From NCBI GenBank assembly GCA_913774845.1, contig CAJYJO010000037.1, positions 17,654 to 81,653 on the forward strand: a stretch of DNA of 64,000 nt, written 5' to 3'. The notes under the pieces are model-generated. The model ran no database searches. It was not told the origin of the DNA and saw only the letters and a program-made list of their open reading frames with translations. The position numbers and the translations under genes were made by a program. Within the stretch, counting starts at the first letter, position 1, and every line of letters starts with the position of its first letter. The stretch comes from an uncultured Microbacterium sp. GTDB lineage: Bacteria; Actinomycetota; Actinomycetes; Actinomycetales; Microbacteriaceae. Positions 7,133 through 54,475 of the stretch are shown one piece after another.

Positions 7133-7154
7133 AGGCTACGCCAGGCCTCCGACA
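7133..7154 (-). promoter_or_regulatory. RecA-NDp/PafBC-type promoter of MFS exporter
   Basis: On the minus strand TGTCGGAG (7154-7147), 8 nt, then TAGCCT (7138-7133), then 6 nt to the GTG start. This is an exact match to TGTCRGWG-N8-TANNNT. Confidence 0.7.
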
Positions 7155-15491: not shown

Positions 15492-16274
15492 TCAGAGCAC
15501 GATCTCGTCGGCAGCTCGCAGCTCGCGGGCGGCCACCGGTCGCAGACCCCGACGGACGAAGGTGTCGGCGGCGGCCAGCGGCCCGACCTCGATCCCCGCC
15601 TCGGCGGCGATGTCGGCGATCGGAACCTGGAAGGTGCGGAAGGCGCCCAGTGGCGGGACGGCGAGACCCTGCCGGGTGTCGACCAGGTCGCTCTGATCGA
15701 GCACGAATCCGGCCGCCGCGAGGGCGTCGTCCTGACGCCAGACGGCGATCTTCCAGAAGCGCAGCGGCACCCGGATGCCGCGATACGGCGGATCGTCGGG
15801 CTCGAGCACGGGGGCGGTGAACACCGCGAGGCGCTGATCGGTCGTCTCGGCATAGGCGAGCACGTGGTCCTCGAGGCCGAGCCAGAGTTCCTTCGACTGG
15901 TTGAATCCCGCCGCCTGCGGGGCGGCGTTCGTGTAGAAGAACGTGGCCTCCGTGGCATCCCGGGCTTCGGACGCCGAACCCCAACCGGGATCGCGACGGC
16001 GCACGAGATGGCCCCGGTCGAGGTCGTTGCGACTGTAGACGTCGGGACCCGCCTGCGCGTCGGCGGCCACGCGCGGGTCGAGCCGCCACTCGCCGGTGCG
16101 GGGCTGCTCGCGCAAGGACGCACCGTCGATCACGACGCCCGTCACCGCCGCGAAGCGACGCTCCTCATCGAGCAGCACCGAGAACCGCGGGTAGTCGAGT
16201 CGTGTCGTCGGGCGGTCGGGGGAGGGCAGGGGCAGGGGGATGCCGAGGAAGTCCGGGTCGTAGCCGTCGCTCAT
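15492..16274 (-). CDS. DNA/RNA non-specific endonuclease (NucA/Serratia nuclease family)
   Basis: The 260-residue protein has the beta-beta-alpha-metal nuclease signature DRGHLVRR (Asp86-His89), with general-base His89. The metal-ligand Asn (TNAAPQ, Asn116; GFNQSK, Asn125) and Glu135 are intact, so it should be active on both DNA and RNA. There is no signal peptide or lipobox, which is unusual for a family best known for secreted enzymes. The ATG start is 6 nt after CACGAT, which is preceded by TGTCGGTG at the same spacing as the recA and ftsK promoters. A cytoplasmic nuclease under a damage-type promoter is the notable inference here. Confidence 0.88.
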   Translation of the reverse strand: MSDGYDPDFLGIPLPLPSPDRPTTRLDYPRFSVLLDEERRFAAVTGVVIDGASLREQPRTGEWRLDPRVAADAQAGPDVYSRNDLDRGHLVRRRDPGWGSASEARDATEATFFYTNAAPQAAGFNQSKELWLGLEDHVLAYAETTDQRLAVFTAPVLEPDDPPYRGIRVPLRFWKIAVWRQDDALAAAGFVLDQSDLVDTRQGLAVPPLGAFRTFQVPIADIAAEAGIEVGPLAAADTFVRRGLRPVAARELRAADEIVL

Positions 16275-16280
16275 GCCCCC

Positions 16281-16302
16281 ATCGTGCCGGTGACCACCGA
16301 CA
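16281..16302 (-). promoter_or_regulatory. RecA-NDp/PafBC-like promoter of the nuclease
   Basis: On the minus strand TGTCGGTG (16302-16295), 8 nt, CACGAT (16286-16281), then 6 nt to the ATG. The -10 has C for T at its first position; the rest fits TGTCRGWG-N8-TANNNT. Confidence 0.6.
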
Positions 16303-35344: not shown

Positions 35345-35366
35345 TGTCGGAGGTCCGGCCTACCGT
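35345..35366 (+). promoter_or_regulatory. RecA-NDp/PafBC-type promoter of ftsK
   Basis: TGTCGGAG (35345-35352), GTCCGGCC, TACCGT (35361-35366), then 6 nt to the ATG. The six bases are GGAGGA, so the same stretch could also act as a very close ribosome-binding site. Confidence 0.72.
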
Positions 35367-35372
35367 GGAGGA

Positions 35373-38102
35373 ATGCCTCGTACCTCGTCACCGTCCGGCG
35401 GTCGTGCTCCCGCCAAGGGGTCGTCGCGCGCGAAGGCCGCGGCACCCGCGTCCAAGCGTGCCGCCCCGGCGCCCAAGCGCTACGTCGACGAGCCCGAGAG
35501 GCCCGCCGTCGCCGTCCGGGCGTGGATGGCCGTCGCCCACGGCGTGGGCGGCATGTTCCGTGCCTTCGGCCCCGAGAACCTCGAGCGCGATCAGCGCCGC
35601 GACGGCTTCCCGTTCTTCCTCGTTGTGCTCGCCGCCCTCGGTGCGGTGGTCGAGTGGTTCTTCATCGGAACGGATGCCGCTGCGCTGATCAGCGCGTACA
35701 GCTTCGGCGGGCTCGTGGGACGAGTCGCCTTCGTCCTCCCGGTGCTGCTGCTCCTTCTCGCGGGGTGGTTGTTCCGTCACCCGGCGTCCGTGCATGACAA
35801 CGGTCGTGTGGGTATCGGTTTCGCCCTCTTCATCGTGACGGTCGCGGGGTTCTGCCACGTCGCGGGGGATCGCCCCGCGCCGAACGTGGGTGGCTTGCCG
35901 GCGCTGAGTCCCGCCGGCGGACTCGCCGGCTGGATCGTGGGAGAGCCGCTCGCCCTCGTCCTGACGAATGTCGGCGCCTACATCGCGCTCTCGCTGCTGG
36001 CGGTGCTGAGCGTCCTCATCCTCACCAAGACGCCGCCGAACCGCATCGGTCGCCGTCTGGGCGACCTCTACGCCTGGATGTTCGGGGCCGAGCGTGCCGA
36101 GCGTGATGAGACGACGGCGACGCAGGTGCTCCCGGCCGACGACGCCGACGACGAGCCGGCCGAGAAGTCGTTGCCGTGGTGGCGACGGAACAAGACGGGG
36201 CGCGAAGAAGAGACCGACGGGTCGCTCGGGTCGAACGACCTGACCGAGCTGCTGTCGCCCGGAACGACGCAGGGCGGCTTCGAGTCGGCGATGGTCGAGC
36301 CCGAGCCGATGACCCGTCCGACACCGCCGCCCCTCCCGCCGACTCCCGATGCCCTGACCGAGGTGTTCGACGCCGCGGCTCTCGCGGGAGCCGCAGCGGG
36401 CCGCGGTCTGCACGACGACTCGCCCCTCGAGGCCGCCGTCGACGACGATCTGCCCGGCATCTCGGGTCTCGGCGGAGACCACGCCGGCGCGCCGCCCGCG
36501 GCGAACTACCGCTTGCCCGCTGTGACCGCCCTCGCCGCCGGCACACCGCCCAAGGCCCGCTCCGCGGCCAACGATGCCGTGGTCAAGGCCATCGAGAGCG
36601 TCATGGAGCAGTTCAAGGTCGACGCGCGCGTGACCGGCTTCTCGCGTGGTCCGACGGTGACGCAGTACGAGATCGAGGTCGGTCCCGGTGTCAAGGTCGA
36701 GCGCATCACCGCGCTCACCAACAACATCGCCTACGCGGTCGCCTCGAACGAGGTCCGCATCCTCGCGCCCATTCCGGGCAAGAGCGCGATCGGTGTCGAG
36801 ATCCCCAATGCCGACCGCGAGATCGTGACCCTGGGCGACATCCTCCGTTCGGATGCCGCGACGTCGTCCACGCACCCCATGACCATCGGCGTCGGCAAAG
36901 ACGTCGGGGGCGGATTCGTCGTCGCGAACCTCGCCAAGATGCCCCACCTCCTCGTGGCGGGCTCCACCGGTTCGGGAAAGTCGAGCTTCGTGAACTCGAT
37001 GATCACGAGTCTGCTCATGCGGGCGAAGCCGTCCGACGTGCGCATGGTCCTGATCGACCCGAAGCGCGTCGAACTGACCTCCTACGCGGGCGTGCCGCAC
37101 CTCATCACCCCCATCATCACGAACCCCAAGAAGGCCGCCGAGGCGCTGCAGTGGGTCGTGAAAGAGATGGACATGCGCTACGACGACCTGGCGTCGTTCG
37201 GGTTCCGCCACATCGACGACTTCAACAAGGCCGTGGTCGCGGGAGAGATCCAGCTGCCGGCCGGCAGCGAGCGGGTCCTCAAGCCCTACCCGTACCTGCT
37301 CGTGGTCGTCGACGAGCTCGCCGACCTCATGATGGTCGCGCCGCGCGACGTCGAGGATTCGATCGTCCGCATCACGCAGCTCGCGCGCGCGAGCGGCATC
37401 CACCTCGTCCTGGCGACCCAGCGACCGTCGGTCGACGTCGTCACGGGTCTCATCAAGGCGAACGTGCCCTCGCGCCTGGCCTTCGCCGTGACCAGCGTCA
37501 CCGATTCGCGCGTCATCCTCGATCAGCCCGGAGCCGACCGCCTGATCGGGCAGGGCGACGGTCTCTTCCTGCCGATGGGAGCCTCCAAGGCGCTGCGCGT
37601 GCAGGGCGCGTGGGTGAGCGAGCAGGAGATCGAGAAGGTCGTCGCGCACGTCACGCAGCAGGCGCGACCCGAGTACCGCTCCGACGTGCAGGCCGCGGCC
37701 GAGAAGAAGGAGATCGACGCCGACATCGGTGACGACCTCGAGCTGCTCCTCGCCGCAGCCGAGCTCGTCGTGTCGACCCAGTTCGGCTCGACGTCGATGC
37801 TCCAGCGCAAGCTCCGGGTGGGCTTCGCCAAGGCGGGTCGTCTCATGGACCTGCTCGAGTCCCGCGAGATCGTCGGCCCGTCCGAGGGGTCCAAGGCGCG
37901 CGATGTGCTGGTGACCAACGAGCAGCTGCCCGCCGTGCTGGCACGACTCCGCGGCGATGACTCTCCGTCGGCCCCCGCGGGCGATGTCGACGACCGGTAC
38001 GGCGCGGATCCGATCGAGGCGCAGTTCGAGGGCCTGCCCGTGGTGAACGCCGACGACGACGAAGGCTCGGAAGACGCCTGGCAGCTCACGGGGCGTGACT
38101 GA
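35373..38102 (+). CDS. ftsK: DNA translocase FtsK/SpoIIIE
   Basis: The 909-residue protein has a basic N-terminal tail (1-40), four to five membrane helices (about 80-220), an acidic and proline-rich linker (240-390), the motor domain with Walker [11 protein letters not shown] (529-538) and Walker [13 protein letters not shown], and a C-terminal winged-helix gamma domain (about 765-830) that reads polar KOPS-like sequences. It pumps DNA through the division septum and supports dimer resolution. The promoter carries the damage-type word. Its stop codon overlaps the pgsA start by 1 nt. Confidence 0.96.
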
Positions 38103-38689
38103 TGGCCGTCCACCCGCAGCTCCCCAACGCGATCACGATCGCGCGCATCCTCTGCGCGCCCGTCTTCCTGTGGCTCCTCCTCGCCGACGCGGGGGCCGGG
38201 GGCGCTCTCCGCTGGGCCGCCGCGATCGTCTTCATCGTCGCGATCGCCACCGACGGCGTCGACGGATACATCGCGCGCCGGTACGACATCGTCAGCGACC
38301 TCGGAAAGCTCCTCGATCCGATCGCCGACAAGGTGCTCACCGGCATCGCCTTCATCGGGCTGTCGATCCTGGGCGAATTGCCGTGGTGGGTGACGATCGT
38401 CGTCCTCGTGCGCGAGGTCGGGATCACGGTGTACCGCTTCGTCGTCGTGAGCGACCACGTGCTGGCCGCCGCGTGGATGGGCAAACTCAAGACGGTCTTC
38501 CAGGCCGTCGCGCTCTCGATCGCCCTCGCACCCCTCTCGGGTCTGTCCGATGCGTCCGCGTGGCAGAGCACCGTCTGGTGGGCCGGGGTCGTCACCATGA
38601 CCATCGCCGTGATCCTCACCATCGCCTCGGGTATCGACTACGTCGTGACCGAGGTGCGCGCGGCGCGCGGGAAGAAGGGGCGCAGATGA
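38102..38689 (+). CDS. pgsA: CDP-diacylglycerol-glycerol-3-phosphate 3-phosphatidyltransferase
   Basis: The 195-residue membrane protein carries the CDP-alcohol phosphotransferase motif DGVDGYIARRYDIVSDLGKL continuing to DPIAD (Asp51, Asp54, Asp72, Asp76). It makes phosphatidylglycerol phosphate, the precursor of phosphatidylglycerol and cardiolipin. It is encoded between ftsK and cinA with overlapping stop and start codons on both sides, an arrangement typical of actinobacteria. Confidence 0.94.
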   Translation: MAVHPQLPNAITIARILCAPVFLWLLLADAGAGGALRWAAAIVFIVAIATDGVDGYIARRYDIVSDLGKLLDPIADKVLTGIAFIGLSILGELPWWVTIVVLVREVGITVYRFVVVSDHVLAAAWMGKLKTVFQAVALSIALAPLSGLSDASAWQSTVWWAGVVTMTIAVILTIASGIDYVVTEVRAARGKKGRR

Positions 38690-39213
38690 TCGACGGCATC
38701 CCCGACGACCTCGATGAGACGGTCGTCCGCACGCCGCGCGAGAGCGCGTCCCTGCTCCTGGATCGACTCGTCGAGCTCGGCTGGACCGTCGCCGTGGCCG
38801 AGTCCCTCACGGGGGGACTCGTCGTCTCATCGCTGGTCGACATCCCCGGCGCCTCGCGCGCGGTGCGCGGGGGAGTCGTGGCCTACGCGACCGATCTCAA
38901 GCACGGGGTGCTCGGGGTAGATCAGGCGCTCCTCGAGGCGCACGGCGCCGTGCATCCGCGCGTCGCGCGCCAGATGGCGCGGGGGGTGCGCGAGGTGCTC
39001 GGGCGCGACGGCGCGGCCGCCGACGTCGGCATCGCCACGACGGGAGTGGCCGGGCCCGACGGACAGGACGGACAGCCCGTGGGTACAGTGCACATCGCCG
39101 TGTCGACGCCGCTGGGCACCCGCGTCGACTCCCTCGTCATCGCCGGGGACCGTGAGCGGATCCGGCACGAGACGGCGCATCTGGCGCTCCGGCGAGCCCT
39201 GGCGGCACTGTGA
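38686..39213 (+). CDS. cinA: CinA family protein (NMN amidohydrolase domain)
   Basis: The 175-residue protein is the stand-alone C-terminal domain of CinA, with AESLTGGLVVSSLVDIPGAS near residue 39 and the GVAGPDGQ motif. In other bacteria this domain (PncC) deamidates nicotinamide mononucleotide for NAD recycling. The MoCF-like N-terminal domain of full CinA is absent. The ATG overlaps the pgsA stop codon. A 6-bp inverted repeat (GTGATC, 39210-39225) follows at its end. Confidence 0.93.
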   Translation: MIDGIPDDLDETVVRTPRESASLLLDRLVELGWTVAVAESLTGGLVVSSLVDIPGASRAVRGGVVAYATDLKHGVLGVDQALLEAHGAVHPRVARQMARGVREVLGRDGAAADVGIATTGVAGPDGQDGQPVGTVHIAVSTPLGTRVDSLVIAGDRERIRHETAHLALRRALAAL

Positions 39214-39311
39214 TCTGCCGATCACGGCGCGTGCCGACGAAATGCGGGAACAAATCCTGTCACATCGCGGTTTCGTTCTGCGATTCCCATCCTGTGCACA
39301 GCGCGCGGCAT

Positions 39312-39317
39312 TAGGGT
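39312..39317 (+). promoter_or_regulatory. Promoter -10 of clgR
   Basis: TAGGGT lies 70 nt before the clgR ATG. GAGGAGG at 39372-39378 is the ribosome-binding site. Confidence 0.5.
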
Positions 39318-39386
39318 GACCTTCAACGGTGTTCACCAGTCGCTCATCCGGGCGGCGACGGAATCAGCAGTGAGGAGGGCCCCCTA

Positions 39387-39695
39387 ATGATCCTGGTTCG
39401 TCAAGAGATCGGCGAAGTCCTGCGTGACCTCCGCCAGCAGAAGGGCCGTACCCTCCGCCAGGTCGCGAGCCGGGCGAGTGTCGCGCTCGGCTACCTCAGC
39501 GAGGTCGAGCGCGGTCAGAAGGAAGCCTCGAGCGAGATCCTGGCCGCGGTGGCCGAGGCGCTCGACGTGCCCATCTCGACCATCATGCGTCAGGTCGGCG
39601 ACCGCCTCTCCGTCCTCGAGGGGCTGCAGACCTTCCCCGACGTCGTCCCCGACGACCTCGTCGCCGCGGTCGAGCCCGAACTGTCGCTGCGCTGA
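39387..39695 (+). CDS. clgR: XRE-family regulator, ClgR-like
   Basis: The 102-residue protein is almost all helix-turn-helix (LRDLRQQKGRTLRQVASRAS, then VALGYLSEVERGQKEAS), with a short tail. Sequence and position between cinA/pgsA and recA match ClgR, the actinobacterial activator of clp protease and other stress genes. In mycobacteria the same locus (Rv2745c) was at one time proposed to act on the RecA-NDp promoter. RBS is strong and well spaced. Confidence 0.92.
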   Translation: MILVRQEIGEVLRDLRQQKGRTLRQVASRASVALGYLSEVERGQKEASSEILAAVAEALDVPISTIMRQVGDRLSVLEGLQTFPDVVPDDLVAAVEPELSLR

Positions 39696-39701
39696 CGCTG
39701 C

Positions 39702-39926
39702 ATGCGTCGTAGCGAGTTCGACCGCGCCGTCGCCGACGAGTTCGGCCCGCGCGGCGGGTCCCTGCTGACCGACCTCGTCCTCTCCGCCGTCGGCGGGCGC
39801 ACGAGCGTCGATGCACTCGCCGCCGGCGTCGACCCGCGCGAGGTGTGGCTCGCCCTTTGTGCCGAGACCGACGTCCCCGAGAACCGGCGTTACGGTGTCG
39901 GTCGGCTGGAGCCGCGCCGTTCCTGA
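39702..39926 (+). CDS. DUF3046 protein
   Basis: The 74-residue protein matches DUF3046 (MRRSEFDRAVADEFG, AAGVDPREVWLALC, DVPENRRYG). Genes of this family lie directly upstream of recA in many actinobacteria. It starts 6 nt after clgR and is likely cotranscribed. The function is unknown. Confidence 0.9.
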   Translation: MRRSEFDRAVADEFGPRGGSLLTDLVLSAVGGRTSVDALAAGVDPREVWLALCAETDVPENRRYGVGRLEPRRS

Positions 39927-39996
39927 TCCGCATCGGCTACCGTCACGTGTTCCCGCTCGTCGAATCGTGGATTCGAACAGAGATCCACGGCGTGTC

Positions 39997-40027
39997 ATCG
40001 AACCTACGTTCGATGCCGGCGTAGGCT
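39997..40027 (+). promoter_or_regulatory. recA promoter 1 with LexA (SOS) box
   Basis: ATCGAACCTACGTTCGAT (39997-40014) is a perfect 7-bp-arm palindrome of the actinobacterial LexA type TCGAAC-N4-GTTCGA. TAGGCT at 40022-40027 is a -10 whose -35 region would lie under the box. A separate 7-bp hairpin (39966-39989) is just upstream. Confidence 0.8.
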
Positions 40028-40085
40028 CCTTCCCAACAGGGTTCGCGATCGATCTCTCCCCAGATGGACGGTTCTCCGACGCCAA

Positions 40086-40107
40086 TGTCGGAGGTCCTCT
40101 CTACGGT
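40086..40107 (+). promoter_or_regulatory. recA promoter 2, RecA-NDp/PafBC type
   Basis: TGTCGGAG (40086-40093), 8 nt, TACGGT (40102-40107) lies about 105 nt before recA. It is an exact fit to TGTCRGWG-N8-TANNNT and gives recA a second, LexA-independent damage promoter. Confidence 0.8.
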
Positions 40108-40211
40108 GGGGAACGTCGAACGACACCCTGAACGCCTTGTCGGGTCACCTCACCGTCGGTGGGGGCGCGACAGCCTACAGGCGACCGGAACGCGAGCAGA
40201 AAGAAGACGTC

Positions 40212-41257
<1,046 letters not shown>

Positions 41258-41258
<1 letters not shown>

Positions 41259-42265
41259 TGAGCGACGACCACGACGACCCCGGTCGCCGGTCCGTCGAGC
41301 CGGCGGGCGGCGACCGGGGCGTCGACGACCAGCGGCGCTCCGCTGACCGTGGGGGTCGGCTGCGAGGACTGCCCGGTGGGGGAGCGGGTGAGGGGCTCGC
41401 GCCGGTCATCCCCCTCTTCGGCGGGCGACGGAACGCCTCGAGCGGGCCGGGAATGAGCGACCGTAAAGAGGCATCCGACGCGTCCTCGGCCCGCCGCGGC
41501 GGCGTTCGTTCTGCTGACGAGCCCGCCGGCGCGACCTCCCACCCGGCCGGTGCGGCGCGTTCCGGTGCGCCGGTCCGGGTCGAACCGTCGGAGGCGTCCG
41601 ACGGCGACGCGTGGGCCGGCGCGGGCTCGGGGCGGGATGCCGCGAGCGGTCGTCGACCGCGGCTGCGGGCCATCCTCGCCGATGACCCGTCCTCGCCGGG
41701 TATCGACGGCGACGCCCCCGAGAACGATGCGGACGAGGTCAGAGAGCGCGCCGAAGAGCTGCTTCTGCGCAAGCTGCGGTCGCGCTCGCTCTCGCTGTCG
41801 GAGGCACGCACCGTCATCCGCGGCGTCGACGGGGCCGACGACGTCATCGTCGACTGCCTCATCGACCGATTCGTCGACCTCGGCTATCTCGACGATGCGA
41901 CCTTCGCCGAGCAGCTGGTGCTGTCGGCGATCGAGAAGCGCGGGGAGGGGCGTCGGGCGGTCGCCGAGACGCTTCGCAAGCGCGGGATCCCGCGTGACAT
42001 CGCCGAGGCCGCTCTCTCCGAGCTCCCCGACGATGACGCGGAGCGGGCGCTGGAGTTCGCTCGGTCGAAGATGCGCGGCGTCGACGGGAAAGACTACGAC
42101 GCCGCCCTGCGGCGGTTGGGCGGCCAGCTCGCACGTCGCGGGTATCCCTCATCGGTGGCCCTCACCGCCGCACGAACCGCTCTGTCCGAGGCCGGGATCG
42201 GTCGTGCACGCTCCTTCGGTCGCCCCGCTCCGGCACCCGGGGTCCGATTCACTCCCGACGACTGA
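41258..42265 (+). CDS. recX: Regulatory protein RecX with long N-terminal extension
   Basis: The RecX domain occupies residues 155-320 (RAEELLLRKLRSRSLSLSEA, FVDLGYLDDATFAEQLV, KRGIPRDIAEAALSEL). RecX binds RecA filaments and limits their activity. The first 150 residues are a low-complexity Gly/Ser/Ala/Arg-rich extension without homology. Coupled translation with recA through the 1-nt overlap is typical. The next genes are on the opposite strand behind a repeat-rich gap. Confidence 0.93.
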
Positions 42266-42345
42266 CGCCGCGATCGGCCCCGGGACGCCCCGGTGACGCC
42301 ACCGTCCAGCATCCGCGGCGCGCGATCGACGTCGCCACCGTGCCG

Positions 42346-42560
42346 CATCGCCCCGGCTCGGTGCCTCCGCCGAGGCGACGCGGCCGGTTCCGCATGGTCT
42401 CGGACGAGGTGCTCCCTGAGACGGCGTTGCTGTCCCGCATCGCCCCGAGCCGGTGCCTTCGCCGGGGCGACGCGGCCGCCCTGCATGGCCTCGGACGAGG
42501 TGCTCCCGAGGCGGTGCCGCCGTCCCTCATCGCCCCGGGCCGGCGCCTCCGCCGGCGCCG
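42346..42560. repeat. Tandem repeat of about 91 bp between recX and the LuxR gene
   Basis: The unit starts CATCGCCCCG at 42346, 42438 and 42528, giving periods of 92 and 90. The first two copies share the segments GGCGACGCGGCCG and CTCGGACGAGGTGCTCCC. The third copy is cut short and runs into the 3' end of the LuxR-family gene, so its last residues are encoded by the repeat. No gene is seen in the gap of 261 bases. Confidence 0.85.
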
Positions 42561-45094: not shown

Positions 45095-45258
45095 CTCGCC
45101 TCCCCGACGCCCCGCACCTGGGACGGCACCTTTTCACGATATCCACCGCACACGCAGGTTCACGGCCTAGACGCGCACGGTTCTGCCCAGTACGCGTCAG
45201 AAGCCGTTCGATGGTCCGACTCCTGTGGAGACCGGGCGCACGTCGGGGACGCGACGTT

Positions 45259-45264
45259 TAGACT
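45259..45264 (+). promoter_or_regulatory. miaB promoter -10
   Basis: TAGACT lies 10 nt before the ATG, giving a leader of about four bases at most. Confidence 0.55.
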
Positions 45265-45274
45265 TGCTCGCATC

Positions 45275-46822
45275 ATGACCACCCCCGTTTCGACCCCGAC
45301 GCTGATCGCTCCGTCCGCCGCCGCGCAGAGCGACAACGGCCCGCGCACGTACGAAGTCCGCACCTTCGGATGCCAGATGAACGTGCACGACTCGGAGCGT
45401 CTGTCCGGTTCGCTCGAGAGCGCCGGCTACGTCCGCGCCGATGCGGGCGTCGAGGCCGACGTCGTCGTCATCAACACGTGCGCCGTGCGCGACAACGCCG
45501 CGGGCAAGCTGTACGGCACGCTCGGGCACCTCAAGTCGCGCAAGGATGCGCACGAGGGCATGCAGATCGCCGTGGGGGGCTGCCTCGCACAGATGGACAA
45601 AGATGCGGTGCAGCAGAAGGCTCCGTGGGTCGACGTCGTATTCGGAACCCACAACATGGGCTCGCTCCCCGGCATGCTCGAGCGCGCGCGCCACAACGGC
45701 GAGGCCGAACTCGAGATCCTCGAGTCGCTCGAGATCTTCCCCTCGACCCTCCCGACCAAACGCGACTCCGTGCACAGCGGGTGGGTGTCGATCTCGGTCG
45801 GCTGCAACAACACCTGCACCTTCTGCATCGTCCCGAGCCTCCGCGGCAAAGAGAAAGACCGTCGTCCCGGCGACATCCTGAACGAGATCCGTCTGCTCGT
45901 CGACGACGGGGCGATCGAGGTCACCCTGCTGGGCCAGAACGTCAACTCCTACGGGGTCGAGTTCGGCGACCGCCTGGCGTTCGGAAAGCTCCTTCGCGCC
46001 GCGGGAGAGATCGAGGGACTCGAGCGCATCCGTTTCACGAGCCCGCACCCGGCGGCCTTCACCGACGACGTCATCGCCGCCATGGCGGAGACCCCGGCGG
46101 TCATGCCGCAGCTCCACATGCCGCTGCAGTCCGGCTCCGACCGCATCCTCAAGGCGATGCGCCGGTCGTACCGGAGCGAGAAGTTCCTCGGCATCCTGGA
46201 TCGCGTGCGCGAGCGCATCCCGAACGCGGCCATCACGACCGACATCATCGTGGGGTTCCCCGGCGAGACCGAGGAGGACTTCCAGGAGACCCTCCGCGTG
46301 GTCGAGGCCTCGCGGTTCTCCAGTGCGTTCACCTTCCAGTACTCCATCCGCGAGGGGACCCCCGCGGCGACCATGCCCGACCAGGTTCCGAAGGCCGTCG
46401 TCCAGGATCGCTTCGAGCGTCTCGTCGCGCTGCAGGATCGCATCTCGGCCGAAGAGAACCAGAAGCAGCTCGGGCGTACGCTCGAGGTCCTCGTCTCCGC
46501 CGGCGAGGGCAAGAAAGACACGTCGACGCACCGCCTCACCGGGCGCGCCGAAGACAACCGTCTCGTGCACTTCGAGCTGCCCGCAGGCTCCGTCGTCCCG
46601 CGCCCCGGTGACGTCGTGTCGGTCACGGTCACTCACGCGGCGCCCTTCCACCTGCTCGCCGACGCTCCCGACGGGGCGCCGTTGCGCGTCCGTCGCACCC
46701 GCGCCGGCGACGCGTGGGACCGGTCGCAGGCGGAGTCCTGCGGTGTCCCCGCCCCCGCGGGCGAGGCGGGTGCACCGCGCGCGGTGTCGCTCGGGCTGCC
46801 CACGCTGCGCGTCGGCGTGTGA
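45275..46822 (+). CDS. miaB: tRNA-2-methylthio-N6-dimethylallyladenosine synthase
   Basis: The 515-residue radical-SAM methylthiotransferase adds the 2-methylthio group to i6A37 in tRNA. The N-terminal domain holds Cys33, Cys69 and Cys103 for one iron-sulfur cluster, the radical SAM motif CNNTCTFC (Cys177, Cys181, Cys184) the other, and a TRAM domain ends at about residue 460. The last 55 residues are a variable tail. The gene overlaps miaA by 4 nt (GTGA), so both enzymes of this tRNA modification are coupled. Confidence 0.96.
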
Positions 46823-47748
46823 CCGCGCCGGTCCTCTGGGCCGTCGTCGGGGCCACCGGTACCGGTAAGACGGGGCTCTCCCTCGACCTCGCCGAGACGC
46901 TCGCCGCGCGCGGTCGCCTCGCCGAGATCGTCAACGCCGACGCCATGCAGCTGTACCGCGGCATGGACATCGGCACCGCCAAGCTGCCGATCGCCGAGCG
47001 GCGCGGCATCCCCCATCACCTCTTCGACGCCCTCGAGGTGACCGACGAGGCCGCGGTGGCCTGGTATCAGGATGCCGCTCGCGCCGCCGTCCGCGACATC
47101 CACGGCCGAGGCGCGGACGCGATCCTCGTCGGCGGTTCGGGCCTGTACGTCTCGAGCGTGCTGTGGGACTTCCGCTTCCCGCCGCGAGACGAAGAACTGC
47201 GCGCACGTCTCGAGGCCGACCTCGAGGAGCACGGCCCGGGAGCGCTGTTCGCCCGCCTGCGCGAGGCCGACCCCGCCGCGGCCGAACGCATCGACCCGCG
47301 CAACGGTCGTCGCGTCGTGCGCGCGCTCGAGGTGCTCGCGCAGGGCGAGCGGACTCACGGCGGCGCACTCCCGTCGGCGCCTGAGCTCTGGCATCCGTTC
47401 ACGCGCATCCTCGCCACGTCCGTACCGCGCGACGCCCTGGTCCCGCTCCTCGACGCGCGCGTGGACCGCATGTGGGCGGACGGTCTCGTCGACGAGGTCG
47501 AGGGCCTTCGCGCGGCGGGTCTCGAGCGGGGCGTCACCGCCGGACGGGCGATCGGCTACGCGCAAGCGCTCGCGCAGCTGCGCGGCGAGCTGACCCGCGA
47601 CGCGGCGGTGGCCGAGACCCAGGCGCTGACCCGGCGATACGCGCGTCGGCAGGTGTCGTGGTTCCGCCGCTACGGCGACGCCGAGTGGCTCGACGCGAGG
47701 ACGACGGATGCCGCACGGCTCGCCTCCCTCGCCGGAGGTGCGGCATGA
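46819..47748 (+). CDS. miaA: tRNA dimethylallyltransferase
   Basis: The 309-residue enzyme transfers the dimethylallyl group to A37 of tRNAs that read UNN codons, making the substrate of MiaB. The P-loop GATGTGKT is at 11-18, and [23 protein letters not shown] and [14 protein letters not shown] are family motifs. Start is a GTG overlapping the miaB stop. A GNAT gene overlaps its own stop. Confidence 0.96.
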
Positions 47749-48197
47749 CCTGGACGATTCGGGCTTTCGCCCCCGCCGACGAGGACGCCGTGGTCGCCCT
47801 CTGGGAGGAAGCGGGCCTCACCCGTCCATGGAACGATCCACGAGCCGACATCCACCGCAAGCTGCGCGTGCAGCCCGAGCTGTTCCTCGTGGCCGCCGAG
47901 GGCGACCGCGTCGTGGGCAGTGTCATGGCCGGATACGACGGTCACCGCGGCTGGCTGTACTACCTGGCGGCGGCCGACTCGCATCGCGGACGGGGGATCG
48001 GGCGTGCGCTCGTCGCGGAGGCGGAGCGGCTGCTCGAGCACATGGGGTGTCCCAAGGTGCAGCTGATGGTCAGACCCGACAACGTCGCCGCCCGCGGGTT
48101 CTACGACGCCCTCGGGTACGAACCGTTCGACACGTGGGCGACCGGCCGGCGCATCGTGGTGGACGGCCCGGGAGGACCGCCTCCGCCGGCTCCGTAG
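47745..48197 (+). CDS. GNAT family acetyltransferase (YpeA-like)
   Basis: The 150-residue protein resembles Ype[21 protein letters not shown], then [17 protein letters not shown], and the acetyl-CoA loop [12 protein letters not shown]. The final ten residues are proline-rich. The start overlaps the miaA stop (ATGA), making it part of the miaBA operon. Substrate unknown. Confidence 0.9.
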
Positions 48198-48200
48198 ACT
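48195..48200 (+). promoter_or_regulatory. Leaderless -10 of dapF
   Basis: TAGACT lies 6 nt before the ATG of dapF and overlaps the last codon of the preceding GNAT gene. Confidence 0.65.
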
Positions 48201-48206
48201 GGAGCG

Positions 48207-49061
48207 ATGGCGACTCTCCCGTTCACCAAGGGCCACGGAACCGGCAACGACTTCGTGGTGGTGGCCGACCCCGACGGCGACCTCGACCTCTCCGACGCGC
48301 AGGTGGCCGCGCTCTGCGACCGCCATTTCGGTATCGGCGCCGACGGGCTGCTGCGGGTGGTGCGTTCGAGCGCGCTCGCCGAGGGGACCTCGGCGGCCGC
48401 CGACGGGGCCGAGTGGTTCATGGACTACCGCAACGCCGACGGCTCGAAGGCCGAGATGTGCGGGAACGGCACGCGCGTGTTCGCCCGTTACCTCACCGAC
48501 ACGGGGCTCGCCGCGATCGATGACGGGCTGCGGATCGGCACCCGCGCCGGGATCAAGACGCTCACGCGCAGCGACCGCGGCTTCGAGGTCGACCTGGGGG
48601 TGTTCGCGGTGGATGCCGACGAGACCCTCGTCCGCGCGAAGGGGCTGCCCGTCGCGCGACCCGGCGTCGGTATCGACGTCGGCAACCCCCACGTCGTGGT
48701 GGCCCTGTCGTCCGACGCCGAGCTCGAGGAGCTGGATCTCGCGTACCAGCCGGTGCTCGACCCGGCGCCCCGGCACGGCGCCAACGTGGAGTTCGTGGTG
48801 CCGGCCGACCCGCTGGTGCGCGACGGCGTCGGGGCGATCCGGATGCGTGTCTTCGAACGTGGCGTGGGCGAGACCTTGAGCTGCGGCACGGGCGTGGCGG
48901 CTGCGGCCCTGGCCGTCCGACACTGGGCCGGGGCGGCCGCTCCCGACCACTGGGTGGTCGACACTCCCGGCGGCACGCTCGGTGTGCGCGTGTCGGACGG
49001 CCGCGTGTACCTGTCGGGTCCGGCGTCGCTGGTCTTCACGGGCGAGGTCGCGCTCGCCTGA
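48207..49061 (+). CDS. dapF: Diaminopimelate epimerase
   Basis: The 284-residue enzyme interconverts LL- and meso-diaminopimelate using two cysteines, Cys85 in AEMCGNGTR and Cys226 in TLSCGTG. The N-terminal [10 protein letters not shown] and the [10 protein letters not shown] segments are typical. It supplies meso-DAP, or its precursor, to lysine and peptidoglycan synthesis along with dapA and dapB found in this window. The transcript is predicted to be leaderless and independent of miaBA. Confidence 0.97.
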
Positions 49062-49093
49062 GGACCGGACCACCTCACTCGGGCGCTCGGAAT

Positions 49094-49140
49094 CACACGA
49101 TCGGCGCGAACCACACGAAACGGTGGCGCATGATCGTGTG
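49094..49140. repeat. Inverted repeat with CACACGATC arms
   Basis: CACACGATC (49094-49102) and its exact complement (49132-49140) flank a 29-nt loop. The left flank reads AATCACACGATC, related to the repeat words at 12646 and 19933. It lies between the convergent dapF and rsmC-like genes. Confidence 0.7.
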
Positions 49141-49195
49141 CGCTCGGGCGGAGCGTGTGTCCTCGCCGCCCCGGGTCGGGGCGGGGGCGCCCGGC

Positions 49196-49840
49196 TCAGA
49201 CCACGACGTCGATGGGCTCGCTCGGCGGCGAGCCGTGGCGGCGCACCCGCAGCACGCGGAAGCCGCGTCCGGTCGCGGCTCGCTGCACTCCGTAACCGTC
49301 GGCGAAGGTGGCGGCGAGCCAGCGCTGCAGCGAGTCGGAGCCGAGGTTGCGCTGCACGACGAACCAGCCGTCGGAGCGCTCCGTCATGCGGGGGATCCAC
49401 TGCTGCAGCATGCCGTGCAGCTCGTTCTTGCCCACCCGGATCGGCGGGTTGGAGCGGATGGTGCGGAACGAGACGTCGTCGGGAACATCCTCGGGCCGGA
49501 CGGCGTTGACGTTGTGGAGGCCGAGGGATTCGGCATTGCGCCTCACGAGATCGAGGGCACGCTCGTTGACGTCGACCGCCCACACGGTCGCGTGCGGTGA
49601 CGCGAGCGCCAGAGACAGCGAGATCGGACCCCACCCGCACCCCAGGTCGAGGAAGTTCCCACCGGCGGGCGGGGGAGGCGTGTTGGCCAGCAGCACCGAG
49701 GTCCCGGCATCCACGTGATCGGGACTGAACACGCCGCCCGCCGTGACCACCTCGAGATCCCGGCCGGCCAGCGTCACACGGATGCGACGCAGCTGCTCGG
49801 AACTCGACGGCGACGCGCTGAAATAGTGCTCGTTGCCCAT
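49196..49840 (-). CDS. Class I methyltransferase, RsmC/RlmG-like
   Basis: The 214-residue protein starts HYFSASPSSSEQLRRIRV and has the SAM loop NFLDLGCGWGPISLSLALAS and the motif IRSNPPIRVGK, an NPP(F/Y)-type signature of base N-methyltransferases in the RsmC/RlmG group that modify guanine in rRNA. It has only the catalytic half of RsmC, as is common in actinobacteria. The ATG lies 6 nt after TATCCT on the minus strand. The rRNA target is not fixed by sequence alone. Confidence 0.88.
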   Translation of the reverse strand: MGNEHYFSASPSSSEQLRRIRVTLAGRDLEVVTAGGVFSPDHVDAGTSVLLANTPPPPAGGNFLDLGCGWGPISLSLALASPHATVWAVDVNERALDLVRRNAESLGLHNVNAVRPEDVPDDVSFRTIRSNPPIRVGKNELHGMLQQWIPRMTERSDGWFVVQRNLGSDSLQRWLAATFADGYGVQRAATGRGFRVLRVRRHGSPPSEPIDVVV

Positions 49841-49846
49841 CAGGCC

Positions 49847-49852
49847 AGGATA
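49847..49852 (-). promoter_or_regulatory. Leaderless -10 of the RsmC-like gene
   Basis: TATCCT on the minus strand lies 6 nt before the ATG at 49840. Confidence 0.55.
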
Positions 49853-49882
49853 TCCGACCGGCCTCCCGCCCGCCCGGGCGGA

Positions 49883-49888
49883 TAAAGT
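49883..49888 (+). promoter_or_regulatory. hflX promoter -10
   Basis: TAAAGT lies 39 nt before the hflX ATG, with AAAGGA as ribosome-binding site. Confidence 0.5.
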
Positions 49889-49927
49889 GCCAGAACACGC
49901 GGAGACACCCGCGGACGAAAGGAACAC

Positions 49928-51445
49928 ATGACCGAACAGACCACACCCCCGAGCACCGAAGCGCCCGCCGTCGACCCGGTGGACCGTGTGCTCTCGCGCG
50001 CCGAAGCGCACCGCGGGGTCCGGGTCTTCGGTGCAGCACAGGCACTCCAGGACGCCACCACGGCCTACGGCGGAGACACCGACGGCGATCAGTGGGACCG
50101 TGAGGAGCGCGCGGCGCTGCGCCGCGTCGCCGGACTCTCCACCGAGCTCGAGGATGTCACCGAGGTCGAGTACCGCCAGCTGCGCCTCGAGAACGTCGTC
50201 CTCGTGGGCGTGCACCCGCAGGGCGAGCAGACGGATGCCGAGAACTCGCTGCGCGAACTCTCCGCCCTCGCCGAGACGGCCGGTGCGGTCGTGCTCGACG
50301 GCGTGCTGCAGCGCCGGCCCCACCCCGATCCCGCCACGTACGTCGGTCGCGGGAAGGCGGCCGAGCTGCGCGACATCGTCGCCGCGGTCGGCGCCGACAC
50401 CGTCATTGCCGACACCGAGCTCGCCCCCAGCCAGCGGCGCGCGCTCGAAGACGTCGTCAAGGTCAAGGTGATCGACCGCACCACGGTGATCCTCGACATC
50501 TTCAGCCAGCACGCCAAGAGCCGAGAGGGCAAGGCGCAGGTCGAGCTCGCGCAGCTCGAGTATCTGCTCCCGCGTCTGCGCGGCTGGGGTGACTCCATGT
50601 CGCGTCAGGCCGGTGGACAGGTCGGCGCGGGCGGGGCGGGTATGGGCTCGCGCGGTCCCGGTGAGACGAAGATCGAACTCGACCGCCGTCGTATCCGCAC
50701 GAAGATGGCGCTGCTGCGCAAGCAGCTGCGCGACTTCGCCCCCGCCCGCGAGGCCAAGCGCGCGGAGCGCAAGCGCCACACGATCCCCTCGGTCGCGATC
50801 GCGGGGTACACCAACGCCGGCAAATCGAGCCTGCTCAACCGGCTGACCAGCGCGGGCGTCCTCGTCGAGAACGCCCTGTTCGCGACCCTGGATGCCACCG
50901 TCCGCCGCTCCGAGACCAGTGACGGCCGCGTGTACACGCTGACCGACACCGTCGGCTTCGTCCGCAACCTGCCGCATCAGCTGGTGGAGGCGTTCCGCTC
51001 GACGCTCGAGGAGGTCGGCGACGCCGACGTGATCCTGCACGTCGTCGACGCCTCGCATCCCGACCCGGCGGCTCAGCTCATGACGGTGCGCGACGTGATG
51101 GGCGATGTGGACGCGAACTTCGGTCAGGAGATCGTCGTCTTCAACAAGGCCGATCTCGTGTCCGAGGACGACCGGCTGGTGCTGCGCGGCCTCGCCCCGA
51201 AGGCGATCTTCGCCTCGTCCCGAACCGGCGAGGGCATCGAGGAGCTGCGGGCGGCGATCGAGGACGCACTGCCGCTGCCGGCCGTCGAGGTGCAGGCGGT
51301 CGTGCCGTACGACCGCGGCGACCTCGTCTCGGCGGTGCACGAGAGCGGATTCATCGTCGCTCAGGAGCACCGCGAGAACGGGACGTTCCTGCACGCGCAC
51401 GTGGGTGCGCGCCTGGCGGCGGACCTCGCCCCGTTCGCAGCCTGA
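49928..51445 (+). CDS. hflX: GTPase HflX
   Basis: The 505-residue protein has the HflX N-terminal domain, the glycine-rich stretch GGAGMGSRGPGETKIE (235-250), a coiled coil and the G domain with G1 GYTNAGKSS (293-301), G3 DTVGF and G4 NKAD. HflX splits stalled 70S ribosomes under stress. The N-terminal 60 residues are longer than in enterobacterial HflX. It is transcribed alone and ends in a strong bidirectional hairpin. Confidence 0.96.
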   Translation: MTEQTTPPSTEAPAVDPVDRVLSRAEAHRGVRVFGAAQALQDATTAYGGDTDGDQWDREERAALRRVAGLSTELEDVTEVEYRQLRLENVVLVGVHPQGEQTDAENSLRELSALAETAGAVVLDGVLQRRPHPDPATYVGRGKAAELRDIVAAVGADTVIADTELAPSQRRALEDVVKVKVIDRTTVILDIFSQHAKSREGKAQVELAQLEYLLPRLRGWGDSMSRQAGGQVGAGGAGMGSRGPGETKIELDRRRIRTKMALLRKQLRDFAPAREAKRAERKRHTIPSVAIAGYTNAGKSSLLNRLTSAGVLVENALFATLDATVRRSETSDGRVYTLTDTVGFVRNLPHQLVEAFRSTLEEVGDADVILHVVDASHPDPAAQLMTVRDVMGDVDANFGQEIVVFNKADLVSEDDRLVLRGLAPKAIFASSRTGEGIEELRAAIEDALPLPAVEVQAVVPYDRGDLVSAVHESGFIVAQEHRENGTFLHAHVGARLAADLAPFAA

Positions 51446-51452
51446 CCCCCTT

Positions 51453-51493
51453 CACGAAGGCCCCGACGACATCATGTCGCCGGGGCCTTCGTG
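51453..51493. terminator. Bidirectional terminator of hflX and the S9 peptidase gene
   Basis: Two 18-nt arms pair at 17 positions around an ATCAT loop, between convergent genes. Confidence 0.88.
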
Positions 51494-51509
51494 CGTGCGG
51501 CGACGACCT

Positions 51510-53408
51510 TCAGTCCGCGCTGGCCTCCAGGTCGAGAAGGGGAACGCCGGGGGTCTCGAAGCCGAACACCGCGCCGAGGAAGCCGAGTTCGCGTTCGAGG
51601 GAGTCGATCACCGTCTCGGACCGACGGAACCCGTGACCCTCTCCCTCGTAGAGGACGTAGGCGTGGGGGACGCCGTGAGCGGCGAGGGCGTCGCGGATGG
51701 CTTCGGCCTGCGACGGGGGAACGACCCGGTCCTCCGACCCCTGCAGGATGAGGAGCGGAACGCGGAACAGCTCGGGACGGCCCAGGGGCGAGCGCTCGAG
51801 ATAGACCGCCTCGGCCTCGGGCAGCGGTCCGATGAGTCCGTCGAGGTACCGCGCCTCGAAGTCGTGGGTGTCTTCGGCCAGCGCACGCGCATCGCCGACA
51901 CCGTAGCGCGAGATGCCGGCCGAGAAGACGTCGGTGCGGGTGACGGCGGCGAGCACCGTCCAGCCCCCGGCCGAGCCGCCCGCGATGGCGAGGCGCTGCC
52001 GGTCGGCGAGCCCCGCCTCGGCGAGGGCGGATGCCGCTGCGGCGACGTCGTCGACGTCGACCACGCCCCATTGCCCCTTGAGGCGGTCGCGGTACGTCCT
52101 GCCGTAGCCCGTCGAACCGCCGTAGTTGACGTCGAGCACGCCGATACCGCGGCTGGTGAAGAACGCGGTCTTTGCCGACGGAGCCGGCCCGACGTGCGAG
52201 GTGGGTCCGCCGTGGACCAGGACCACGTAGGGCGGCCGCCCTCCCTCCAACGGGGCGACGTCGGGGTTGGTGGGGGCGTAGGCGAACGCGTGCACCGGGC
52301 CGTGCGGCCCCTCGGTCGTGAGCGCGCGGGCGCGCGGCATCCACTCGTCGGGCCAGGACCCGGCGCCTCCGGTGACGAGATCGACCGCGCCGGAGTCGAG
52401 ATCGACCACCCACAGGCCCGCGCGGCCACCGGCGTCGGAGCCCGAGACCAGCACACGCGAACCAGCGACGTTGTCGATGGCGGCGCCGGCCACGATCGGC
52501 ACGTCGATCGGCCGCACCCCGCTGGGCGCGATCTCGACGATCTCGTCGGCTCCGTTCGTGCGGACCGCGACCACGCGGCCGTCGGCTGCGGCGGCGAACC
52601 ACCGCGTGCCGAGGACCCACAGCCCGCCGCCCGTGTCGGCGTCGGCGGGGGCGAGGGGTTGCGGACCGCCGGAGAGCGGGTGACGGAAGAGGTTCCAGCG
52701 CCCGTCGGGGTCGTCGGCGTAGAGGAGTTCGTCGTCGGCGACCCACACGGGTTGCAGGGGAGCGCGCCCATCGCCGCCGGCGAGATCGTGCACGGCCGCG
52801 CTCTCGAGGTCGGCGACGCGCAGCGTCGTGGCGTCCCACGGCATGTCGGGGTGGTTCCATGCGATCCAGGCCAAGCGACGCCCGTCGGGGGAGAGGGCGG
52901 GTTGCGCGAGGAAGTCGCTGCCCTCCGCGAGCACCTCGACCGGGCCGTCGAGGGAGATACGCACGATCGCGCGGTGCGGCACGCGGGAGGAGCCGTGGGT
53001 CTCGCGGACGGCGAGCAGGACGCCGTGCTCCCAGCGGAGACCGCCGTGCCGCACGGCGTCGTCAGCGGGGGTGAGGGGGCGCGCGCTCTCACCCGGACGG
53101 AGCGCGTAGACGCGCTGGTCGGTCTTCTCGACGTAGTACAGCTCGCCGTCGTCCGACGCCGTCCAGGCGCCGCCGCCGTACTCGTGCACGGCGGAGCGCG
53201 CGTTGGCGGGGGCGGGCAGCACCGTCTCGACGGAGCCGTCGGCCCGACGTCGCTTCACCGCGACGCGGCCTGCCTCGTGCGGGACGGACTCGCCCCACCA
53301 GATCTCGTCGCCCACGAGCCGGGCCCCGTCGACGCGCGGCGATGCCTGCGCGACGGACTCGGGCGTGATCGGCGAGGGCCAGGAACCGTAGGGGAGGGTG
53401 TCAGCCAT
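51510..53408 (-). CDS. S9-family peptidase (prolyl oligopeptidase-like)
   Basis: The 632-residue protein has an N-terminal seven-bladed beta-propeller (about 30-370) and a C-terminal alpha/beta hydrolase domain. The catalytic triad is Ser479 in GGSAGGW, Asp560 in GSEDRVVPP and His592 in GEGHGFR; VLVHGGPTSHVG holds the oxyanion region. It is a DPP/acylaminoacyl-peptidase-type enzyme without signal peptide and cuts short peptides in the cytoplasm. It is transcribed toward hflX from a promoter of the recA/ftsK damage type and lies beside lexA. Confidence 0.92.
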   Translation of the reverse strand: MADTLPYGSWPSPITPESVAQASPRVDGARLVGDEIWWGESVPHEAGRVAVKRRRADGSVETVLPAPANARSAVHEYGGGAWTASDDGELYYVEKTDQRVYALRPGESARPLTPADDAVRHGGLRWEHGVLLAVRETHGSSRVPHRAIVRISLDGPVEVLAEGSDFLAQPALSPDGRRLAWIAWNHPDMPWDATTLRVADLESAAVHDLAGGDGRAPLQPVWVADDELLYADDPDGRWNLFRHPLSGGPQPLAPADADTGGGLWVLGTRWFAAAADGRVVAVRTNGADEIVEIAPSGVRPIDVPIVAGAAIDNVAGSRVLVSGSDAGGRAGLWVVDLDSGAVDLVTGGAGSWPDEWMPRARALTTEGPHGPVHAFAYAPTNPDVAPLEGGRPPYVVLVHGGPTSHVGPAPSAKTAFFTSRGIGVLDVNYGGSTGYGRTYRDRLKGQWGVVDVDDVAAAASALAEAGLADRQRLAIAGGSAGGWTVLAAVTRTDVFSAGISRYGVGDARALAEDTHDFEARYLDGLIGPLPEAEAVYLERSPLGRPELFRVPLLILQGSEDRVVPPSQAEAIRDALAAHGVPHAYVLYEGEGHGFRRSETVIDSLERELGFLGAVFGFETPGVPLLDLEASAD

Positions 53409-53414
53409 GAGCCC

Positions 53415-53436
53415 AGCCTAGGCAGGGCCTCCGACA
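53415..53436 (-). promoter_or_regulatory. RecA-NDp/PafBC-type promoter of the S9 peptidase
   Basis: On the minus strand TGTCGGAG (53436-53429), 8 nt, TAGGCT (53420-53415), then 6 nt to the ATG at 53408. It matches TGTCRGWG-N8-TANNNT exactly. Confidence 0.72.
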
Positions 53437-54321: not shown

Positions 54322-54475
54322 CTGGGCTCCCCTCGCGCCGCGGAAAAGACGGCGGAAATTCGAATGTCGGAGGTTGGTGATGAGGTCTCCGTGTCGAAAC
54401 CGTATCCGGTCGACGACCCGAATGGCACGGAGCTGCACGCGTGTCGCGTTCGATTCGTCTCCGATATCCGGCCTC

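What the first reader, a model, noticed from the sequence alone, without database searches (positions are those of the whole stretch)
35345..53436. A shared damage-type promoter word at five scattered genes
The word TGTCGG(A/T)G-N8-(T/C)ANNNT occurs before ftsK (35345), recA (40086), the MFS exporter (7133-7154, minus), the S9 peptidase (53415-53436, minus) and the non-specific nuclease (16281-16302, minus). Spacing is exactly 8 nt in all five. In four of them the start codon follows the -10 by exactly 6 nt. The mycobacterial RecA-NDp promoter, bound by PafBC, has consensus TGTCRGTG-N8-TANNNT. The set outlines a LexA-independent DNA-damage regulon that includes genes not usually assigned to it. 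Copies of TGTCGGAG inside coding regions (41796, 44350) lack a -10 at N8.
Basis: partly seen in the sequence, partly recalled or inferred. Interest (0 to 1): 0.82.

Follow-up and report, generated by a model that had tools for sequence, protein, structure and literature searches.

The report
Enlarged DNA-damage regulon in Microbacterium
Five genes in this stretch share a known type of DNA-damage on-switch, and in one group of Microbacterium species that switch sits in front of roughly four times as many genes as in related species, which makes the growth of a gene-control network open to direct study.

Summary
The genome holds 102 such sites against 3 for the reversed word; of 60 TGTCGGAG...TANNNT pairs with gaps of 4-12 nt, 59 have a gap of 8. 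Of 67 TANNNT sites read, 63 are followed by a same-strand coding ORF, 50 with the start codon 6-8 nt on, so leaderless mRNAs are likely. Many genes are DNA repair: uvrA, uvrB, uvrD, mfd, recQ, tag, alkZ, SRAP, imuA'. Tandem pafB/pafC homologues exist. This is a PafBC/RecA-NDp-type regulon; damage induction and PafBC dependence are inferred, not shown. New here: site number splits within the genus. A clade around M. testaceum carries 21-64 leaderless TGTCGG promoters per genome (22 genomes, median 54.5), 176 others 2-28 (median 14). PafB's recognition-helix stretch shows no clade-specific change. At 17 orthologous genes two sister species keep a leaderless -10 at 15 each, but the full -26 word at only 4 and 3 (clade member: 16 and 12). 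The regulon seems to have grown in cis.

The parts
35345..35366 (+). PafBC-type (RecA-NDp-like) promoter of ftsK: TGTCGGAG-N8-TACCGT, ATG 6 nt on at 35373
   Evidence: TGTCGG-N10-YANNNT at this place in 11 of 11 clade genomes (AG at positions 7-8 in 5) and 2 of 10 other genus genomes
35373..38102 (+). ftsK, probably read from the leaderless ATG at 35373
   Evidence: FtsK_SpoIIIE, FtsK_alpha, FtsK_gamma
40086..40107 (+). PafBC-type promoter of recA, TGTCGGAG-N8-TACGGT, 104 nt before the ATG
   Evidence: TGTCGG-N10-YANNNT in 11 of 11 clade genomes (AG at 7-8 in 11) and 9 of 10 other genus genomes (AG in 3)
39998..40013 (.). LexA-type palindrome TCGAACCTACGTTCGA upstream of recA
   Evidence: one of 2 exact places of TCGAACNNNNGTTCGA in the genome; visible
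40212..41258 (+). recA
7133..7154 (-). PafBC-type promoter of the MFS exporter, GTG 6 nt on
   Evidence: a TGTCGG-N10-TANNNT-N6-GTG site upstream in 3 of 7 clade genomes that have the gene in the stretch fetched (in two of them 240-258 nt before the matched start), 0 of 7 others
5792..7126 (-). MFS exporter
   Evidence: MFS_3, MFS_1
16281..16302 (-). PafBC-type promoter with a CACGAT -10, before the nuclease
   Evidence: conserved in 10 of 10 other clade genomes fetched; of 3 non-clade genomes with the gene in the stretch, 2 have a like site (G342, G428) and 1 (G306) has not
15492..16274 (-). DNA/RNA non-specific endonuclease
   Evidence: Endonuclease_NS
53415..53436 (-). PafBC-type promoter of the S9 peptidase, ATG 6 nt on
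   Evidence: TGTCGG-N10-YANNNT in 8 of 10 clade genomes with a readable start (own genome included), 0 of 7 others
51510..53408 (-). S9 (prolyl oligopeptidase family) peptidase
   Evidence: Peptidase_S9

Best explanation
The five sites are members of a genome-wide set of about 70-80 PafBC-type (RecA-NDp-like) promoters. Shown: an element cgaTGTCGGAGg placed 8 nt before a TANNNT (sometimes CANNNT) -10, usually followed 6-8 nt later by the start codon; a gene set rich in DNA repair; tandem pafB/pafC homologues; conservation in relatives. Inferred from the mycobacterial system: when single-stranded DNA accumulates, PafBC joins SigA holoenzyme on the promoter, PafB binds the -26 element, and transcription starts with no -35 element, here mostly at the start codon. 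Shown by counts, and inferred as history: in the clade around Microbacterium testaceum this promoter set is about four times larger than in the rest of the genus sample, and it seems to have grown chiefly by adding or perfecting the -26 word in front of leaderless -10 promoters that already existed, without a clade-specific change in PafB's recognition-helix stretch.
For: Five sites against 0.04 expected; 102 genome-wide against 3 reversed; 59 of 60 TGTCGGAG...TANNNT pairs over nine spacings at N8; of 67 TANNNT sites read, 63 followed within 260 nt by a same-strand ORF with coding score over 8, 50 with a start codon 6-8 nt on; repair genes; 20 of 67 against 1 of 40, Fisher p 2.5e-4; two adjacent WYL genes, PafB in 197 of 198 genus genomes; no clade-specific change in the PafB recognition-helix stretch; leaderless TGTCGG promoters 21-64 in 22 clade genomes against 2-28 in 176 others, reversed control 0-2; 21 clade rows one branch, support 100/97; orthologous promoters: full word and -10 at 12 of 17 in clade member G302 against 4 and 3 of 17 in two sisters, leaderless -10 at 16, 15 and 15 of 17.
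Against: No expression or binding data. PafB and PafC were identified by WYL domains, tandem order beside tat-like genes and my reading of the sequence; NCBIfam gave no match for either. The 17 genes were chosen because G000 has the site, which favours near relatives; the genome-wide counts do not have that bias. Some genes in the set (G6PD, acetyl-CoA synthetase, MATE, LuxS, CofGH) are not repair genes, and the repair genes recX and lexA lack the site. The basal clade member G337 (88% complete) has only 21, within the range of the others. Some distant lineages also have many sites. A ClgR-like gene could be the regulator.
Confidence: 0.8

Rival explanations
1. The word is read by ClgR, an HTH regulator reported in mycobacteria to recognise the RecA-independent (P1) motif, and PafBC is secondary or absent at these promoters.
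For: A ClgR-like HTH_3 gene lies at 39387-39692, near recA, and in the recA stretch of all 20 other genomes fetched (the name ClgR is my recall from sequence). PMC5656591 passages cite the report that ClgR recognises the P1 motif.
Against: The fixed spacing of the word to the -10 is what a PafBC bound with RNA polymerase would need (passages of PMC11804915); I would expect a classical activator to tolerate more variation (inference). The gene is present alike in genomes with few and with many sites, which is also true of PafB.
Confidence: 0.08
2. In the M. testaceum clade the -26 word has become part of ordinary constitutive promoters and most extra sites are no longer damage-regulated.
For: Several genes with the word have housekeeping roles (dnaX, holA, dnaE, gyrB/parE-like, G6PD, acetyl-CoA synthetase).
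Against: The set stays rich in repair genes (20 of 67 against 1 of 40), and recA, uvrA and uvrB carry the word both in clade and in sister genomes.
Confidence: 0.1
3. The excess in the clade is a by-product of duplicated DUF222 genes with their promoters, or of base composition, not regulon growth.
For: DUF222 genes recur: 3 by Pfam, 6 more by an identical 5' end.
Against: They are 9 of the 67 sites read in G000. Reversed-word controls are 0-3 per genome across the genus sample. The word is present in clade and absent in sisters at genes such as tag, srap and S9. Counts without DUF222 genes in other clade genomes were not made.
Confidence: 0.03

Closest known systems
RecA-NDp (P1) promoters and the PafBC regulon of Mycobacterium
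   Same: Word TGTCR-G at 8 nt from TANNNT; repair genes; recA under both LexA and PafBC control; PafBC heterodimer of WYL proteins (passages of PMC5656591, PMC8223512, PMC11804915).
   Different: Position 7 is A in 57 of 67 sites, where the mycobacterial consensus tTGTCRgtg has t; position -1 is A or G in 64 of 67, where that consensus has t; some CANNNT -10s; mostly leaderless; no proteasome gene seen in the 7.5 kb read around pafBC (the rest of the genome was not searched for them).
RecA-NDp promoters of Streptomyces (for example SCO6735)
   Same: Same promoter class, upstream of a UV-inducible gene (passages of PMC5087735).
   Different: The S. venezuelae LexA study says that an initial search suggested the M. 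smegmatis PafBC motif is not conserved there (passage of PMC9380542). Not compared gene by gene here.
LexA SOS regulon
   Same: Damage-responsive; recA shared.
   Different: Palindromic box bound by a repressor; only 2 exact TCGAACNNNNGTTCGA places in this genome.
DriD of Caulobacter (WYL activator of a non-SOS damage response)
   Same: WYL regulator that binds ssDNA and drives damage promoters (abstract start of PMC12340889).
   Different: From another phylum and not a PafB-PafC pair (recalled); not compared here in sequence.

Membership tests
PafBC / RecA-NDp regulon | Word TGTCRG at a fixed 8 nt from a TANNNT -10 | tested here: met
   59 of 60 over spacings 4-12; mycobacterial consensus tTGTCRgtg-8nt-TannnT from a passage of PMC5656591. 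Positions 7 and -1 differ from it.
PafBC / RecA-NDp regulon | pafB and pafC homologues in tandem in the genome | tested here: met
   WYL matches at G000:C14:94445-94633 and 95422-95610; adjacent genes with tat-like genes beside them. No NCBIfam match for either.
PafBC / RecA-NDp regulon | PafB recognition helix with the two conserved Phe and two Arg | tested here: inconclusive
   DALEKMFERDK is identical in the 17 genus rows printed and has F and R in a like pattern, but it was not aligned with a mycobacterial or Arthrobacter PafB.
PafBC / RecA-NDp regulon | Regulon rich in DNA repair genes, recA, uvrA and uvrB included | tested here: met
PafBC / RecA-NDp regulon | Induction by DNA damage, independent of RecA/LexA, lost without PafBC | not testable with these tools
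   needs expression data
PafBC / RecA-NDp regulon | PafB bound to the -26 element in an RNA polymerase complex | not testable with these tools
   needs binding or structure work
LexA SOS regulon | LexA box at the promoters | tested here: not met
   Of the five window sites only recA has a TCGAACNNNNGTTCGA box, even with one mismatch allowed (30 places genome-wide, reversed control 4).

The most novel reading that the evidence does not exclude
The PafBC regulon grew about fourfold, in steps, along the lineage of the Microbacterium testaceum clade, in cis: a -26 word was written by point changes in front of leaderless -10 promoters that already worked, pulling replication, repair, efflux and peptidase genes under damage control, while the DNA-reading stretch of PafB did not change with it and the word settled on the variant cgaTGTCGGAGg, which is the minor form in the larger groups of the class that I summed.
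Probability: 0.55. Interest if true: 0.65.

Novelty: new variant of a known kind. Interest (0 to 1): 0.52.

Why it matters
How activator regulons grow is rarely caught in the act. Here a sharp difference in regulon size falls between related, culturable species with similar regulators, and single promoters can be compared with and without the activator word on the same -10. Because PafBC needs only the -26 word and a -10, a few point changes may be enough to recruit a gene. It also gives a concrete gene list for a LexA-independent damage response outside mycobacteria and streptomycetes; two searches of one open-access library found no paper on PafBC in Microbacterium.

Tried and rejected
I first suspected that the CANNNT sites were chance. 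Of 33 read, 24 have no well-scoring start at 4-9 nt, and 19 of 33 lie under a coding-like frame (score 10 or more), against 2 of 67 TANNNT sites. But 9 are leaderless, five of those precede repair or nuclease genes (ligase, Nei/Fpg, RmuC, Ada-AlkA, nuclease), and the nuclease site is conserved. So CA is allowed at some sites, and most of the other CA matches are probably chance.

I expected a changed PafB recognition helix to explain the A at position 7; no clade-specific change was found there. Clade-specific residues lie elsewhere (for example PafC positions 10, 16, 51, 80, 175; PafB 104, 153, 178, 186); PafC 51 and 80 are in or near its HTH domain, and their role is unknown.

I considered that outside the clade the word merely differs at positions 7-8. 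Freeing both positions and asking for the start codon still leaves a fourfold difference, though part of the A-type difference is drift at 7-8, and within the clade ftsK has AG there in only 5 of 11.

I thought leaderlessness might be special to the regulon; 14 of 62 window genes, sites included, have TANNNT 5-8 nt before the called start, against 0.15 per other offset, so it is common in this genome.

Not done: no structure prediction, no comparison of PafB with mycobacterial sequences, no count after removing DUF222 genes, no search for proteasome genes elsewhere in the genome, no formal reconstruction of gains and losses.

Full report
Observation. The pattern TGTCRGWG-N8-YANNNT has exactly the five matches named, against 0.04 expected in shuffles. 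Reading the flanks confirms a start codon 6 nt after the -10 at ftsK, the MFS gene, the S9 peptidase and the nuclease; at recA 104 nt lie between. The window has nine TGTCGGAG words; five lack TANNNT at N8, one of them, 54365, upstream of lexA.

Genome-wide. The window lies in a 3.37 Mb genome of 55 contigs. The pattern has 102 matches, the reversed pattern 3. I read 100 of the 102: 67 of 69 TANNNT sites and all 33 CANNNT sites (total of 69; the two unread sites appear). Among TGTCGGAG followed by TANNNT at any gap from 4 to 12, 59 of 60 have a gap of 8 and one of 9. Of the 67 TANNNT sites, 63 are followed within 260 nt by a same-strand ORF with a coding score over 8; of the four others L072 has a HIRAN match, L056 the DUF222 start sequence, and L014 and L068 show no convincing gene. 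Fifty have the start codon 6 (40), 7 (7) or 8 (3) nt on. A tally of the 67 sites extends the word beyond what was searched for: C at -3 in 49, G at -2 in 46, A or G at -1 in 64, G at position 9 in 57, G at position 19 in 45; position 7 is A in 57 and T in 10.

What the genes are. Pfam names, behind TANNNT sites, UvrA, UvrB, two UvrD-like helicases, an Mfd-like protein (UvrB interaction domain), RecQ, a RadA-like protein, DNA polymerase III alpha (DnaE, also NCBIfam), DnaX, HolA, SbcD, a gyrase B/ParE-like subunit, 3-methyladenine glycosylase, an AlkZ-like glycosylase, an Xth-like enzyme, an RNase_T exonuclease, SRAP and a RecB-like RNase_H_2 protein; with recA and ftsK that is 20 of 67 by my own sorting (gene names beyond the Pfam names are mine). 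ImuA' is named by NCBIfam and was not counted, nor were the SprT-like, HIRAN and second RNase_T proteins. Others are catalase, a DtxR-type regulator, MFS, MATE and ABC transporters, LuxS, G6PD, acetyl-CoA synthetase, ParA, CofGH, DUF222 proteins and proteins with no match. Six DUF222-like genes were not scanned apart from L003 (no match, 86 aa); they are named by their common start sequence. Of 40 site-less window genes one is repair-linked by my sorting, recX (CinA, 'competence-damaged protein', was not counted); Fisher p 2.5e-4. That control is 40 of the window's 58 site-less genes, taken from the left end, so lexA, also without a site, is not in it. Nine CANNNT sites are leaderless; five precede an ATP-dependent ligase, a Nei/Fpg glycosylase, RmuC, Ada-AlkA and the nuclease.

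The regulator. WYL (PF13280) matches three proteins of the genome; two are adjacent and read as PafB (330 aa) and PafC, followed by tat-like genes, with no proteasome gene in the 7.5 kb read. The published mechanism, ssDNA-activated PafBC whose PafB engages the -26 element with SigA holoenzyme, comes from passages of PMC11804915; the consensus tTGTCRgtg-8nt-TannnT from a passage of PMC5656591; that the promoter type extends to other Actinobacteria from a passage of PMC8223512. I read passages, not whole papers.

The clade. In 198 genomes drawn from the genus the A-type word (TGTCGGAG-N8-TANNNT) occurs 19-71 times in 22 genomes and 0-17 in the rest; the T-type 4-17 times in the 22 (sums 959 A and 249 T in the 22). 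With positions 7-8 free and a start codon required (TGTCGG-N10-TANNNT-N6-RTG) the 22 have 21-64 (median 54.5), the other 176 have 2-28 (median 14), reversed control 0-2. Twenty-one of the 22 are the genomes with the most similar PafB (84% identity or more; the next is 81%); the 22nd, G458, has a weaker, perhaps cut, PafB match and was put with them for its counts. In a PafB tree of 50 rows the 21 form one branch (100/97); the most basal, G337, an 88% complete assembly, has 21, one inner branch 39-56, the rest 44-64, and the 29 other rows 5-21. Named records at that identity include M. testaceum, M. proteolyticum, M. enclense, M. hydrothermale and unnamed Microbacterium strains and assemblies.

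Wider comparison. In 296 genomes of the class some other lineages also have many sites (W = A or T at position 7): 207 in a 7.5 Mb genome (G174) and 23-76 in all 27 genomes of genus g30. The A-type share, summed by hand, is 41 of 1377 in g30, 7 of 207 in G174, 24 of 198 in 13 same-order genomes, 14 of 61 in six same-family genomes of other genera, 55 of 160 in 12 genomes of g46, 58 of 112 in the seven other genus members of that sample, and 59 of 69 in G000. Single genomes elsewhere can be mostly A-type too (G288, 11 of 13). So neither a large set nor the A-type word is unique to this clade; the sharp rise within one genus together with the A-type word is what stands out.

How it grew. The PafB stretch DALEKMFERDK is identical in the 17 rows printed, and no position of the recognition-helix region differs consistently between 21 clade and 29 other rows. 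At ftsK the site is in 11 of 11 clade genomes and 2 of 10 others, of which two have a 9-nt gap and two ACGTCGG; at recA 11 of 11 and 9 of 10; at S9 8 of 10 and 0 of 7. The nuclease site is in 10 of 10 other clade genomes fetched and in 2 of 3 others with the gene; an MFS site in 3 of 7 clade and 0 of 7 others. For 17 further genes compared in clade member G302 and sisters G445 and G374, TGTCGGWG-N8-TANNNT is present at 12, 4 and 3, TGTCGG-N10-TANNNT at 14, 10 and 5, and a leaderless -10 at 16, 15 and 15. Thus the -10 and the leaderless start look old and the full -26 word newer. Gain in one clade is simpler than loss in all sister lineages, but no formal reconstruction was made.

Verdict. The regulon is of a known kind with a variant word. 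The clade-specific growth is the part I did not find in print (all of one open-access library, listings and abstract starts seen). Induction and PafBC dependence remain to be shown.

Noticed in passing
window 54365-54372 (+), upstream of lexA: A further TGTCGGAG, within TTCGAATGTCGGAGG, recurs upstream of lexA in several clade and non-clade genomes but has TGAGGT, not TANNNT, at N8. Its role is unknown.
   Followed up: partly
window 39387-39692 (+): A ClgR-like HTH_3 gene lies near recA; a match is in the recA stretch of all 20 other genomes fetched.
   Followed up: partly
L074 (G000:C46:1252-1311): imuA' has a PafBC-type site and, 22 nt further on, a one-mismatch LexA-type box, so it may be doubly controlled like recA.
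   Followed up: partly
L003, L016, L021, L037, L049, L056, L082: Genes of what looks like one DUF222 family share the same 5' end behind a like promoter in seven places, some at contig ends (Pfam for L021).
   Followed up: no
class sample, genus g30 and G174: All 27 genomes of g30 (5.8-11 Mb) carry 23-76 RecA-NDp-like words and G174 207, with controls 0-4, although a passage of PMC9380542 says the M. smegmatis motif seems not conserved in S. venezuelae.
   Followed up: no
window genes in general: Fourteen of 62 window genes have TANNNT 5-8 nt before the called start, so leaderless promoters are common in this genome.
   Followed up: yes
L272 and L276: Records titled Planococcus sp. and Stenotrophomonas maltophilia encode PafB proteins 76% and 74% identical to this one, so these records look mislabelled or contaminated.
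   Followed up: no
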